DNA of 36,300 nt from an uncultured Pelagibacteraceae bacterium (GTDB lineage Bacteria > Pseudomonadota > Alphaproteobacteria > Pelagibacterales > AG-422-B15), in the NCBI GenBank assembly GCA_902584215.1, contig CACHYW010000010.1, forward strand, positions 1-36,300, given 5' to 3'. The notes below the pieces were generated by a model, which saw only the letters and a list, made by a program, of their open reading frames with translations, did not search any database and was not told where the DNA came from. Shown one piece after another: positions 21,455-27,308 of this stretch. A program made the translations under genes and the position numbers. Within the stretch, counting starts at the first letter, position 1. Each line of letters opens with the position of its first letter.

Positions 21455-22585
21455 TTATATAACCTCATCTTCATAAAACTTTTTTATTTCTTCATCACTG
21501 TAGCCAATTTCTCTCATAATATCATTATTATCTTGACCAATTTCAGGTGCCTTTTTGATTTCTGTTTTATCGTCAGAACTAAATCTAGGTGCAGGTGCTG
21601 GCTGAATTACTCCATCCACATCAATAAAGTTGTTTCTATCAATCATATGAGGATGATCTTTAGCTTCATTTATTGACAATACAGGTGCGTAACATACATC
21701 CGAACCCTCAAACAATTCATTCCATTCACTTATGTTTTTAGTTTTAAATATAGATTCTAATTTTTCTTTTAACTTTGGCCATTCGTTCATGTCCAATTGA
21801 TTGCTAAAATCACTCTGAAGTTCTAATTTTTCAATCAGCAGCTGATAAAACTGAGGTTCAAGTGATCCTAGAGATATAAATTTATGATCTTTTGTTTCAT
21901 ATACTTGATAAAATGGAGCTCCCCCATCAAGTAAATTCATCCCTCTCTTGTTAACATCCCAAAGGCCTGATTGCGATAAGCTGTAAAAAATTGACGTAAG
22001 AGTTGAAACACCATCAATCATAGCCGCATCAACTACCTGCCCTTTACCTGTTTTAGAAGCTGATAATAATGCAGCACAAACTCCAAATGCTAAAAACATA
22101 GTGCCCCCGCCATAATCACCAATAAGATTTAAAGGCACTGTTGGTTTCTCAATAACTCCTATTGAATGTAGTGCACCAGCCAGTGCAATGTAATTAATAT
22201 CATGACCAGCAGCTTTGGATAAAGGACCAGTCTGCCCCCAGCCAGTAATCCTGCCGTATACCAATTTAGGATTTATTTTCATACAGTCGTTAGGTCCTAT
22301 ACTTAGTTTTTCAGTAACGCCTGGCCTAAAACCTTCTATTAATGCATCTGCACTTTTAATAAGACTATTAAATATATCGAGTGATTCTTTATTTTTGAGA
22401 TTCAAACTAAAAGATTTTTTATTTCTTCCTGTAATATCATATTTTGGCTTTGTATGAGGTAATGCTGTTTTTTTTCGGTCAATTCTTATGACCTCAGCGC
22501 CTAGATCTGCAAATAACATTCCACATAATGGACCTGGACCTATTCCAGATAATTCAATTATTCTATATCCACTAAGTACACCCAT
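21455..22585 (-). CDS. CaiB/BaiF family CoA-transferase (alpha-methylacyl-CoA racemase-like)
   Basis: LSGYRIIELSGIGPGPLCGMLFADLGAEVIRID; GRITGWGQTGP; AGHDINYIALAGAL. Confidence 0.9.
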   Translation of the reverse strand: MGVLSGYRIIELSGIGPGPLCGMLFADLGAEVIRIDRKKTALPHTKPKYDITGRNKKSFSLNLKNKESLDIFNSLIKSADALIEGFRPGVTEKLSIGPNDCMKINPKLVYGRITGWGQTGPLSKAAGHDINYIALAGALHSIGVIEKPTVPLNLIGDYGGGTMFLAFGVCAALLSASKTGKGQVVDAAMIDGVSTLTSIFYSLSQSGLWDVNKRGMNLLDGGAPFYQVYETKDHKFISLGSLEPQFYQLLIEKLELQSDFSNQLDMNEWPKLKEKLESIFKTKNISEWNELFEGSDVCYAPVLSINEAKDHPHMIDRNNFIDVDGVIQPAPAPRFSSDDKTEIKKAPEIGQDNNDIMREIGYSDEEIKKFYEDEVI

Positions 22586-22593
22586 ACCATTGA

Positions 22594-24963
22594 TTATAGC
22601 GAGGCCAATTCTTTTGCAAAGCTAAAAGCTTTATATATTCTCTGTTTATCAGAGATTTTACTAAAATTATAAACAAGTGTTTGGTCAGTTCTTAATTTAA
22701 TATCAAATTTATTAAGATTTATAAAATCTATCAATTTGTCGATATTATCAAATTTATTATTTCTAAATTTAATGGTTAGACCTTTCTTCCCAAGATCAAA
22801 TTTTTCTATACTTAATTGTTTACACAAAATTCTTAATCCAGTGATTTTGAATAAGTGATTAACTTCATTAGGCATTAATCCAAATCTTTCTTCCATTTCT
22901 TTCTTAACTTCAGTCAGTTCACTATTAGTATTTAAATATGCTAATTTTCTATAAAAGAATAATCGTGTATTTAAGTTTGGTATGTATTTTTCAGGAATTA
23001 AAACACTTAAACCTAAATTGAGCTGTGGAGACCAGTCATTGTCAATTGAATCGCTATCATTTTTCAGTTCAATTATTTTGTCTTTTAAAAGACGATGATA
23101 TAACTCTAATCCAATTTCTTTTATATGACCTGATTGTGCGTCACCAATTATATTACCAGAACCTCTCATATCAAGATCATGACTTGCTAAATTAAAGCTA
23201 GACCCCCTGCTATTGAATTTTTTTAGTAAAGAAAGTCTTTTAAATGAATTTTCAGTAATGCCGTTAATATCTTTCACGGTATAATAACAGAAAGCCTCAA
23301 TATTTGACCGGCCAATCCTCCCTCTTAATTGATAAAGTTGTGATAATCCAAACTTATCTGCATTATGAATAATCATAGTATTAGTTTTTTGCAAATCTAA
23401 ACCCGACTCAACAATCGTTGTGCATAACAATAATTGAAATTCATTATTGTAAAAATCAATCATGGTATTCTTAAGTTTTTTGGGCGGCATTTGTCCATGA
23501 GCAATCTTATATTTTAACTCAGGCATTGCCTTTTTTAGAAAATCATCAACTTCTTTCAGTTCTTTAATTCGAGGACATACGTAATAAATTTGTCCATTTC
23601 TATTTAGTTCTTTTTGAATGGCATCTTTAAGATCTTGTTCATTAAAATTTATTACTTCTGTCGCTATTGACTGCCTATTTAAAGGTGCAGTAGAGATAAT
23701 GGATAAATCTCTTAATCCCACCAAAGACATTTGAAGAGTTCTTGGAATCGGTGTTGCGGTAAGGGATAATACGTGAATGTCTGACCGCAAATTCTTAATT
23801 TTTTCTTTTTGAGAGACACCAAAATGCTGCTCTTCATCAATAATAAGCATGCCCAAATTTTTAAATTTAATTTTATTACCTAGTAGTGCATGTGTGCCAA
23901 CAACTATATCAAGCTCGCCATTATTTATTTTTTCTAAAGTTGAACTAGTTTCTGAGGCTGAAACTAATCTTGATAACTGACCTATTTTAATTGGAAAATT
24001 TTTAAATCTTTTAATAAAGTTTTCGTAATGTTGCTGACACAGGAGTGTCGTTGGAACAATGATTGCAACTTGAGCACCATTTAGTGCTACATTGAACGCA
24101 CCTCTAAGTGCAACCTCTGTTTTGCCAAAACCCACATCGCCACATATCAATCGGTCCATAGGAGCACCATGACTTAGATCTGCTAAAATATCTGAAGTAG
24201 CATTAACTTGATCTTCTGTATCTTGGAACTCAAATTCATTTATAAAATTTGAATAGTAAGGTTCTTGTATCCTATATTTTTTTCCTTTTTTTAATGATCT
24301 TTTAGCTGCAATGACTATTAATTCCTCAGCTATTTCCTTAATTTTATTTTTTGCACTAGCCTTTCTAAATTGCCAATGTGAATTACCTAACTTATCAACT
24401 TGCACATACTCATTGTTGCCACCGTATTTACTCAATAATTCTATATTTTCGACAGGAACATAAAGTTTATCATCATTAAAATAATTTAACTCAATACAAT
24501 CATGACTATTCCCAAGAACTTCTAATTTCTTTAAACCTCGAAATTTACCAATTCCATGGTTAGCGTGTACTATTAAGTCATTGTCCTCAAAACTACTTAG
24601 GTCTGATAAAAAAGTGTCGGCTTTAATTGATCTCTTTCCTTGATTAAAAGCAAATTCATTAAATGGCCGAATAACTGCTCTGGTAATTTTTTGTATAGTT
24701 TTTTGAGTCTTTAAATCAAATTCTTCAAACTTATCTATGTCGTTTCCAAATAAATTTATTCTTATTGGTTTTGCAAATTCTGATGGAAAGATATCAATAA
24801 CATCTCCTTTAACAGAAAATTCGCCAGGTTCACGTATTGAACTTACTCTGACATATCCATTGGTAGATAAATAATTGAGTGTTAATTCGTAATCGAATTT
24901 ATTATCTAAATTAATATTTAAGTTTGACAGTTTAGATGGTGTAACTAGTGCTTCTGGTGGCAT
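22594..24963 (-). CDS. mfd: Shortened transcription-repair coupling factor (mini-Mfd, 789 aa)
   Basis: HANHGIGKFRGL...LYVPVENIELLSKYG (RID), CGDVGFGKTEVALRGAF, DEEQHFGV, TATPIPRTL, D7 C-terminus; start overlaps the sdhE stop (TAATG). Confidence 0.93.
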   Translation of the reverse strand: MPPEALVTPSKLSNLNINLDNKFDYELTLNYLSTNGYVRVSSIREPGEFSVKGDVIDIFPSEFAKPIRINLFGNDIDKFEEFDLKTQKTIQKITRAVIRPFNEFAFNQGKRSIKADTFLSDLSSFEDNDLIVHANHGIGKFRGLKKLEVLGNSHDCIELNYFNDDKLYVPVENIELLSKYGGNNEYVQVDKLGNSHWQFRKASAKNKIKEIAEELIVIAAKRSLKKGKKYRIQEPYYSNFINEFEFQDTEDQVNATSDILADLSHGAPMDRLICGDVGFGKTEVALRGAFNVALNGAQVAIIVPTTLLCQQHYENFIKRFKNFPIKIGQLSRLVSASETSSTLEKINNGELDIVVGTHALLGNKIKFKNLGMLIIDEEQHFGVSQKEKIKNLRSDIHVLSLTATPIPRTLQMSLVGLRDLSIISTAPLNRQSIATEVINFNEQDLKDAIQKELNRNGQIYYVCPRIKELKEVDDFLKKAMPELKYKIAHGQMPPKKLKNTMIDFYNNEFQLLLCTTIVESGLDLQKTNTMIIHNADKFGLSQLYQLRGRIGRSNIEAFCYYTVKDINGITENSFKRLSLLKKFNSRGSSFNLASHDLDMRGSGNIIGDAQSGHIKEIGLELYHRLLKDKIIELKNDSDSIDNDWSPQLNLGLSVLIPEKYIPNLNTRLFFYRKLAYLNTNSELTEVKKEMEERFGLMPNEVNHLFKITGLRILCKQLSIEKFDLGKKGLTIKFRNNKFDNIDKLIDFINLNKFDIKLRTDQTLVYNFSKISDKQRIYKAFSFAKELASL

Positions 24964-25220
24964 TACAGTAAAGTATAATCCTTAAGAAGAGTGAATACTC
25001 TATTATTTAAAGACTCTGGAATTTCTTTTTTATTTAATGAATATTGATAAATATCGTTATCATCCATTTCAAGTATTGCTTCAAGCATTACAAGCTCATC
25101 TTCATTAAATAAAGATAGGTACTTATGTGCAAATTTTCCCAAAATAAGATCCATTTCCTTGGATCCACGATGAGTGGACTTGTACAATAGTTTTTTTTGA
25201 AATGTTGATAAATCTTCCAT
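24963..25220 (-). CDS. sdhE: SdhE (FAD assembly factor, succinate dehydrogenase)
   Basis: HRGSKEMDLILGKFA (RGxxE motif), 85 aa, directly upstream of mfd. Confidence 0.88.
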   Translation of the reverse strand: MEDLSTFQKKLLYKSTHRGSKEMDLILGKFAHKYLSLFNEDELVMLEAILEMDDNDIYQYSLNKKEIPESLNNRVFTLLKDYTLL

Positions 25221-25250: not shown

Positions 25251-27308
25251 ATGAGGCCTAAAATCTTATACAAGCTTTTTTCAAATATAATATCACTTAA
25301 AGGCATTGGACCAAAAAATGCTAAGGTTATAGAAAGGTTATGTGGCAAATATGTTATAGATCTCTTATTTCATAAGCCATCTACATACATTGATAGAAGA
25401 AACAGTCCAAAAATAGTTGATCTTGAAGAAGGTAAAATCGCAACAATCATAGTTACGATAGATAGTCATTCACCTTCATTCAATAAAAGGATGCCCTATC
25501 GCATTAATTGCACCGACGATACTGGAGCTATTTCAATCGTATATTTTAACTTGCGAGGCCCCTATCTAAAAAAAATATTTCCGGTAGGTAGGCAGAAAGT
25601 AATTAGTGGTAAATTTGAGAAATTTAATGAAAACTTTCAAATAACACATCCCCAACATGTAGTAGACTTAGAAAATTTAGATAGTGTCAAAAAAATTGAG
25701 TGTATTTATCCACTTACTGCTGGATTGACATCAAAAACTATACAAAAATCTATAAATTCGGCATTAATTAATCTTGATCCTCTTCCAGAATGGATACCTG
25801 ACGATAAAATTAAAATAAATAATTGGCCGAATTGGAATGAAGCCATTAAAAAAATACACAACCCTGTTAATACATCAGACTCGGTTAATTCTCTTTTTCT
25901 TGAAAGATTAGTTTTTGATGAGCTATTAGCTCAGCAACTAACGATACGTCTTATAAAAAACAAAATAAGCCATACCCAGGGCATAGCTATAAGAAGAAAT
26001 AATAAATTAATAAAAAAATTGGAAGAAAATCTTGATTTTAGTCTCACTAGCGATCAATTGAAAACTATAGAGGAAATATCAAACGATCAGTCAAAGCCAA
26101 ACAAAATGCTTAGACTGTTACAAGGAGATGTTGGGAGCGGAAAAACAATTGTTGCTTTGTTTGCTATGATGCAATGTTTAGAAAATAACAAAAGATCTAT
26201 ACTCATGGCGCCAACAGAGATACTTGCTGAGCAACATTTCAATACAATAGTAAAGATCGTTAACTCAATGGATCTAACATGTTCATTGATAACCTCGTCA
26301 ACAAAAGATAATCATAATTTTGACGCAGATATTTTGATTGGTACTCATGCTCTATTTCAAGAAAAGGTATCTTTTGTTAATATTGGCTTAGTTGTGATTG
26401 ATGAGCAGCACAAATTTGGTGTTCACCAAAGAATCTTACTTAATGAAAAAGCAGGCAACGAATGTGATGTATTGCTCATGACAGCAACTCCTATTCCAAG
26501 AACGTTAGAGCTTGCTGCTTATGGAGACACTGATATTTCTAAAATTATGGAAAAACCAAAAAATAGGAAAGAAATTAATACTAAGTCAATAAATATAAAT
26601 AAAGTCGAAGATCTAAAGAACAGTCTTAATAAAATAATTAATAAAGGTGAAAAAATCTATTGGGTTTGCCCTTTGGTCGATGAGTCTGAAAAACTTCAAT
26701 TACAATCTGTAAATGAAAGACTAAAAGATCTCAGAAATTATTATAGCGATTATTCAGTCGAAATTGTGCACGGACAAATGCAGCAAGAAGATAAGAATTC
26801 AGTTATGCAAAAATTCAAATCTGGAAAGGTAAATATATTAGTCGCTACTTCAGTAATAGAAGTCGGCATTGACGACCCTGATGCTACTGTAATTATAATT
26901 GAAAATGCAGAAAGATTTGGTCTTTCACAGCTTCATCAATTACGAGGGAGAGTTGGAAGAGGTGAGAAAACCTCAACCTGCATTTTATTGTTTAACGGTC
27001 CTCTTACTGAAAATGCTAAAAGAAGAATAAAAATTATGAAAGAAACGAACGATGGATTCAAAATTGCTGAGGAAGACCTGGATATAAGAGGTGCAGGAGA
27101 AATTCTTGGATCCAAGCAGAGTGGTGTGCCAAATTTTAAACTGTCAAACCTTGATAAACATAAACACCTCTTAGAAGAAGCGAGGGAAACAGCAATCAAG
27201 ACCATTAAGGATGATCCTGAATTAAAAACACCGCTTGGAAAAGCGCAAAGAGTACTGCTGCATTTGTTTAGAAATGATGTCGCAATTGATTATCTTAAAA
27301 CAGGATAA
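25251..27308 (+). CDS. recG: ATP-dependent DNA helicase RecG
   Basis: KGIGPKNAKVIERL, LLQGDVGSGKT, DEQHKFGVHQR, TATPIPRTLELAAYGD, QLRGRVGRG. Confidence 0.95.
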   Translation: MRPKILYKLFSNIISLKGIGPKNAKVIERLCGKYVIDLLFHKPSTYIDRRNSPKIVDLEEGKIATIIVTIDSHSPSFNKRMPYRINCTDDTGAISIVYFNLRGPYLKKIFPVGRQKVISGKFEKFNENFQITHPQHVVDLENLDSVKKIECIYPLTAGLTSKTIQKSINSALINLDPLPEWIPDDKIKINNWPNWNEAIKKIHNPVNTSDSVNSLFLERLVFDELLAQQLTIRLIKNKISHTQGIAIRRNNKLIKKLEENLDFSLTSDQLKTIEEISNDQSKPNKMLRLLQGDVGSGKTIVALFAMMQCLENNKRSILMAPTEILAEQHFNTIVKIVNSMDLTCSLITSSTKDNHNFDADILIGTHALFQEKVSFVNIGLVVIDEQHKFGVHQRILLNEKAGNECDVLLMTATPIPRTLELAAYGDTDISKIMEKPKNRKEINTKSININKVEDLKNSLNKIINKGEKIYWVCPLVDESEKLQLQSVNERLKDLRNYYSDYSVEIVHGQMQQEDKNSVMQKFKSGKVNILVATSVIEVGIDDPDATVIIIENAERFGLSQLHQLRGRVGRGEKTSTCILLFNGPLTENAKRRIKIMKETNDGFKIAEEDLDIRGAGEILGSKQSGVPNFKLSNLDKHKHLLEEARETAIKTIKDDPELKTPLGKAQRVLLHLFRNDVAIDYLKTG

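What the first reader, a model, noticed from the sequence alone, without database searches (positions are those of the whole stretch)
22594..24963. Mini-Mfd: D2-like module fused directly to the RNAP-interaction domain
The ORF is 789 aa, against 1148 aa for E. coli Mfd. By eye it starts just before the block aligning to E. coli Mfd D2 (YVRVSSIREPGEFSVKGDVIDIFPSEFAKPIRINLFGNDID vs YRHVDQVMEHGEYATRGALLDLFPMGSELPYRLDFFDDEID). After about 30 more residues it jumps (around aa 105-118, about 24609-24648) into the RID (LIVHANHGIGKFRGL). D1a, D1b and D3 appear to be missing, while D2, RID, motor D5/D6 and D7 are kept. From memory, E. coli R165, R181 and F185 contact UvrA; the aligned residues here read K, R and F, so UvrA docking may survive. 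The ATG overlaps the sdhE stop (TAATG) in the conserved sdhE-mfd order, so the N-terminus is not simply a missed upstream exon or frameshift. This could be a natural minimal transcription-coupled repair factor with altered autoinhibition.
Basis: partly seen in the sequence, partly recalled or inferred. Interest (0 to 1): 0.72.

Follow-up and report, generated by a model that had tools for sequence, protein, structure and literature searches.

The report
Naturally shortened SAR11 Mfd protein
One family of SAR11-type ocean bacteria makes a one-third shorter version of Mfd, the protein that pushes stalled RNA polymerase off damaged DNA and calls in repair; it keeps the parts for gripping polymerase, moving on DNA and docking repair proteins but has cleanly lost two other domains, which makes it a natural test of what those domains do.

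Summary
ORF 22594-24963(-) encodes a 789-aa Mfd. E. coli Mfd residues 1 to about 130 and 222-460 (D1a, D1b, D3) are absent; D2 joins directly to the RID/motor/D7 part between aa 108 and 109. It is not an artefact. Forms of 787-804 aa with the same join recur in 38 genomes of four genera of one Pelagibacterales (SAR11) family, form one clade and evolve under strong purifying selection. No D1b/D3 piece exists elsewhere in these genomes. The sister family has no Mfd at all. Among other Alphaproteobacteria Mfd is mostly 1,100-1,250 aa, and no other D2-RID fusion was seen. uvrA, uvrB and uvrC are present in the family. The D2 model matches D2 of the solved UvrA/TRCF complex; UvrA-contact residues read K, R, F/Y. 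The D7 residues that lock D2 are fixed in 22 full-length sequences but vary here. Most likely it is a working transcription-repair coupling factor with the UvrA-docking domain on a short tether and a weaker lock. Function was not tested.

The parts
22594..24963 (-). mini-mfd, 789 aa
   Evidence: (TIGR00580 917.5 bits, cut-off 800)
24652..24921 (-). D2, UvrB/UvrA-interaction domain (aa 15-104)
   Evidence: Pfam PF17757 E 9.9e-21; D2 fold matches 4dfc (core UvrA/TRCF complex), rmsd 1.2
24592..24657 (-). join and linker D2-RID (aa 103-124); fusion point between aa 108 and 109 (24639/24640)
   Evidence: same place in all minis; low confidence in both models but unusually conserved
24424..24591 (-). 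RNAP-interaction domain RID/D4 (aa 125-180)
   Evidence: Pfam PF02559 E 1.7e-19
23305..24204 (-). SF2 translocase D5/D6 (aa 254-553), motor motifs intact
22735..23013 (-). D7 / TRCF domain (aa 651-743) with the drifting E1045/D1048/R1049-equivalent cluster (aa 689, 692, 693)
24963..25220 (-). sdhE (85 aa), stop overlaps the mfd start
   Evidence: Pfam PF03937
25251..27308 (+). recG, divergent neighbour
   Evidence: neighbourhood kept in f1, recG-sdhE kept without mfd in f2
21455..22585 (-). CoA-transferase family III gene, downstream of mfd, conserved neighbour in f1

Best explanation
This is the Mfd (transcription-repair coupling factor) of one family of the order Pelagibacterales, shortened once in their common ancestor by loss of D1a and of the D1b-D3 stretch. 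SHOWN: architecture, single origin, purifying selection, conserved gene order, presence of uvrA/B/C, and a D2 fold like that bound to UvrA in PDB 4dfc. INFERRED: the RID grips the RNAP beta subunit and the SF2 motor pushes stalled RNAP off the lesion as in E. coli. D2, on a short tether to the RID instead of inside a rigid D1-D3 clamp, then recruits UvrA. Because the clamp is gone and the D7 surface that masks D2 is no longer fixed, the protein is probably less autoinhibited than E. coli Mfd.
For: Equivalog hit TIGR00580 at 917.5 bits over its cut-off of 800. Motor motifs nearly invariant in 26 mini sequences. D2 UvrA-contact positions: K/R/(F or Y) in all 26; R and K interchange at the same surface of UvrB in these genomes. 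D2 dN/dS 0 to 0.105, whole-gene dN/dS 0.014-0.070. D2 model matches 4dfc_A (rmsd 1.2, TMt 0.85) and UvrB 3fpn_B (TMt 0.88). All minis form one clade, 100/100 support. UvrA, UvrB and UvrC found. The pre-RID linker is more conserved in minis than in full-length proteins: 13 of 702 windows reach its excess. Literature: in E. coli the D2 surface is needed for TCR while D7 and its lock are not (PMC3025350); D3 is called non-conserved, lineage-specific and of unknown function (PMC7864632).
Against: No biochemistry, and no open-access paper on this protein. Whole-chain model confidence is moderate (mean pLDDT 71, pTM 0.51), so domain packing, including D2 on D7, is not established. R165 became K in all minis, and D183, invariant in 22 full-length sequences and E. 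coli, is N or S in most. Several D6 residues invariant in the full-length set are changed. The window's own genome (74% complete) shows no uvrA, no full uvrB and a uvrC with in-frame stops.
Confidence: 0.7

Rival explanations
1. It works mainly as a remover of stalled RNA polymerase (roadblock clearance, conflict resolution). D2 is kept for folding or regulation and UvrA recruitment has been lost or weakened.
For: RID, motor and D7 are complete; R165K and D183N changes in D2; a reduced alphaproteobacterium outside this order has a 701-aa Mfd-like ORF with RID-motor-D7 and no D2 at all, so Mfd can persist without the UvrA dock.
Against: D2 is the one N-terminal domain kept; it is under purifying selection, and R181/F185 positions stay R and F/Y while the D7 lock residues drift. 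UvrABC is present in the family.
Confidence: 0.2
2. It is a decaying remnant on the way to the loss already seen in the sister family.
For: The sister family has no mfd next to sdhE; one family member has a frameshifted copy (G027).
Against: dN/dS 0.014-0.070 over the gene and open frames (788-804 aa; one cut at a contig end, one 891 aa fused to sdhE) in the other genomes with a hit, across four genera with 61-99% identity to the window protein.
Confidence: 0.05
3. Assembly or amplification artefact (chimera or deletion in single-cell genomes).
For: Many of the genomes are single-cell amplified, where chimeras occur.
Against: The same join is found in 38 genomes of four genera, in metagenome bins too; no D1b-D3 sequence is present anywhere in eleven genomes, while the control genome scores 357 bits.
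Confidence: 0.01

Closest known systems
E. coli Mfd / TRCF (1148 aa; PDB 2eyq, 6x26)
   Same: D2, RID, D5/D6 motor and D7 in the same order; the mini protein is 45-52% identical to the best-matching full-length alphaproteobacterial Mfds over about aa 105-788
   Different: No D1a, D1b or D3; D2 joined directly to the RID; D7 lock cluster not invariant
Thermus thermophilus Mfd (978-981 aa; PDB 6m6a, 13jq)
   Same: Naturally shorter N-terminal part: the match to it begins near residue 304-307 against 461 in E. coli
   Different: By its length it should keep a UvrB-homology module and lack D3 (my inference, not tested); the mini form has lost D1a and D1b as well
Laboratory E. coli Mfd delta-BHM (PMC3025350)
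   Same: Lacks D1a and D1b; derepressed ATPase and translocase as predicted here
   Different: Delta-BHM also lacks D2 and does not support strand-specific repair; the natural mini form keeps D2 and lacks D3 too
701-aa Mfd-like ORF of genome G265 (L192)
   Same: N-terminally shortened Mfd in a reduced alphaproteobacterial genome
   Different: No D2; separate branch of the tree

Membership tests
Mfd / TRCF (TIGR00580) | Equivalog profile over its curated cut-off | tested here: met
   917.5 bits against 800
Mfd / TRCF (TIGR00580) | RNAP-interaction domain followed by RecG-like SF2 motor | tested here: met
   PF02559 125-180, PF00270, PF00271; motor motifs conserved
Mfd / TRCF (TIGR00580) | C-terminal TRCF domain (D7) | tested here: met
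   PF03461 651-743, 90.7 bits, cut-off 25
Mfd / TRCF (TIGR00580) | UvrA-docking D2 with R165/R181/F185 surface | tested here: met
   PF17757 74.1 bits, cut-off 22.9; K/R/F(Y), i.e. with a conservative R-to-K change; fold
Mfd / TRCF (TIGR00580) | Complete UvrB homology module D1a-D2-D1b | tested here: not met
   D1a and D1b absent; so it is a variant, not a canonical member
Mfd / TRCF (TIGR00580) | D3 | tested here: not met
   Absent; D3 is described as lineage-specific (PMC7864632)
Mfd / TRCF (TIGR00580) | Displaces stalled RNAP and speeds template-strand repair | not testable with these tools
   Needs biochemistry or genetics
RecG | RecG equivalog profiles over cut-off | tested here: not met
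   378.6 bits against 718 at best; the true recG is the neighbour at 25251-27308

The most novel reading that the evidence does not exclude
A whole family of SAR11-type bacteria runs transcription-coupled repair with a constitutively open Mfd: no N-terminal clamp, D2 on a conserved tether always available to UvrA, and, in two genera, a D7 lock that has been mutated away. This would show that D1, D3 and the D2:D7 switch are dispensable for transcription-coupled repair in nature.
Probability: 0.35. Interest if true: 0.68.

Novelty: new variant of a known kind. Interest (0 to 1): 0.5.

Why it matters
Mfd is studied as a large autoinhibited machine in which a D1-D3 clamp must swing out of the way before the motor can load and D2 can meet UvrA. 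A natural, conserved Mfd that has only D2 from that module makes the roles of D1, D3 and the D2:D7 lock directly testable, and offers a smaller protein for structural work. It also shows a step between full Mfd and complete loss within SAR11-type bacteria, where the sister family has discarded the gene but kept UvrABC.

Tried and rejected
Split gene (D1/D3 encoded elsewhere): no match of a D1b-D3 profile at E<=10 in eleven family genomes, positive control fine. Missed upstream frame: sdhE ends on the mfd start codon, and the gene order recG-sdhE-mfd is conserved. Horizontal gain of a separate short family: minis form one clade among alphaproteobacterial Mfds, though the place of that clade is unsure because of long branches and composition. 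Remnant of mfd beside sdhE in the sister family: none. Wider occurrence of the fusion: none in 385 class or 399 phylum genomes; the phylum sample shown was mostly Alphaproteobacteria, so other phyla remain essentially unchecked. Papers: nothing on a SAR11 Mfd.

Full report
OBSERVATION. The ORF at 22594-24963(-) is open for 789 aa and starts on an ATG that shares a base with the stop of sdhE. Pfam gives UvrB_inter (15-104), CarD_TRCF_RID (125-180), DEAD, Helicase_C and TRCF (651-743). NCBIfam gives TIGR00580 mfd at 917.5 bits, over the 800-bit cut-off. Against E. coli Mfd the match falls into two blocks, 30-108 to 143-221 and 109-751 to 461-1107. So 222-460 is missing, and the protein begins at the D1a/D2 border (alignment).

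NOT AN ARTEFACT. The window lies in a 1.1-Mb, 74% complete genome. Its junction peptide is 100% identical to one from an uncultured Pelagibacteraceae single cell, and its relatives are single-cell genomes plus metagenome bins of Pelagibacterales. I take the family to be GTDB's AG-422-B15, from one record title; this was not confirmed. In a scan of 247 genomes of the order, 38 have the protein, all in one family (f1) and four genera, at 61-99% identity. Nearly all frames are 788-804 aa; the exceptions are one cut by a contig end, one fused to sdhE and one frameshifted. Of 149 genomes at least 90% complete, the 10 with a match are all in f1. Two f1 genomes without a match are listed, which leaves 137 outside the family, all without Mfd (my count). 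The D2-to-RID join lies at the same place in every mini sequence. A D1b-D3 profile finds nothing in eleven f1 genomes, and 357 bits in a control.

SURROUNDINGS. recG, sdhE, mini-mfd, a CoA-transferase gene and a DUF520 gene keep their order in the f1 genomes examined. In the six sister-family (f2) genomes examined, recG and sdhE are still adjacent but the gene after sdhE is different and no mfd remnant is detectable. uvrA is full length in most f1 genomes and in f2. uvrB and uvrC are over the cut-off in the more complete f1 and f2 genomes tested.

DISTRIBUTION. Of 289 class genomes, 257 have Mfd; those listed are mostly 1,100-1,280 aa and align only from about aa 100-115 on, the fusion point. 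A profile of the D2-RID join matches end to end only in the window's genome (371 bits); every other listed class or phylum hit covers only the RID half, at 122 bits or less. Lower-scoring reduced alphaproteobacteria have other shortenings: 1011-1027 aa forms that keep D2 but have a shorter D1b-D3 stretch, and one 701-aa form without D2. On the tree all minis form one clade with 100/100 support, so the shortening most simply happened once; the position of the clade is not secure.

SELECTION AND RESIDUES. dN/dS is 0.014-0.070 for the gene and 0 to 0.105 for D2. Motor motifs are conserved. At the E. coli UvrA-contact positions R165, R181 and F185 the minis read K (26/26), R (26/26) and F (24) or Y (2); full-length alphaproteobacteria read R, R, F. 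UvrB of the same family has R or K at this surface. At the D7 positions E1045, D1048 and R1049, which hold D2 in E. coli, 22 of 22 full-length sequences are E, D, R; the minis read EER, DER, EDR, EDT, EVT or DNQ. The numbers are small and D7 invariants in general also change (2-5 of 12 in most clades), so this is suggestive, not proof. The stretch before the RID is more conserved in minis (0.69) than in full-length proteins (0.48); 13 of 702 windows show as large an excess.

STRUCTURE. The full-length model has mean pLDDT 71 and pTM 0.51, with D2 at 76-88 and the join (103-122) below 50. Foldseek returns E. coli and mycobacterial Mfd first. A model of aa 1-200 gives D2 near 75-90 and matches Mfd N-terminal structures, the core UvrA/TRCF complex 4dfc (rmsd 1.2) and the UvrA-UvrB interaction domains 3fpn. 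Relative domain placement is not resolved.

MECHANISM. In E. coli, deleting D1a-D2-D1b derepresses ATPase and translocase and abolishes strand-biased repair. Mutating the D2 surface abolishes the bias too, while deleting D7 or its lock does not (PMC3025350). The D1-D3 unit must move away during loading before D2 is exposed, on a 25-residue linker (PMC7864632). The mini protein keeps what is needed for RNAP displacement and UvrA recruitment and lacks the body of the clamp. The simplest reading is a working, less restrained TRCF. The main rival is an RNAP remover no longer coupled to UvrA.

NOVELTY. It is a member of the Mfd family by profile, motor, RID, D2 and D7, but fails the test of a complete UvrB homology module, so it is a new variant. 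I found no paper describing it in the library available, which excludes most subscription journals.

Noticed in passing
L104/L078/L028 (genome G026, SAG AG-426-I21): sdhE and mini-mfd read as one 891-aa open frame, through what looks like one extra A in the A-run at their overlap; real fusion or sequencing error unknown.
   Followed up: partly
L031/L079/L117 (genome G027, SAG AG-404-N21): mini-mfd is frameshifted, in two overlapping frames.
   Followed up: no
G000:C33:228-1971: uvrC of the window's own genome has in-frame stops and continues in a second frame, suggesting a frameshift or contig error.
   Followed up: no
L192 (genome G265): A 701-aa Mfd-like ORF lacking the whole UvrB homology module and D3, with no upstream remnant, in a 1.0-Mb genome that keeps uvrA; relatives G619 and G542 have frames of 1092 and 1106 aa and G160 shows no Mfd.
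   Followed up: partly
L207-L210 (genomes G619, G265, G542, G160): UvrA of this family (807-862 aa frames) skips about model positions 288-399 of TIGR00630.
   Followed up: no
L193, L197, L194 (genomes G088, G315, G338): Mfds of 1011-1027 aa that keep D2 but have a shorter D1b-D3 stretch.
   Followed up: partly
sister family f2, e.g. L072-L077: Complete genomes keep recG-sdhE and uvrABC but have no mfd at all.
   Followed up: yes
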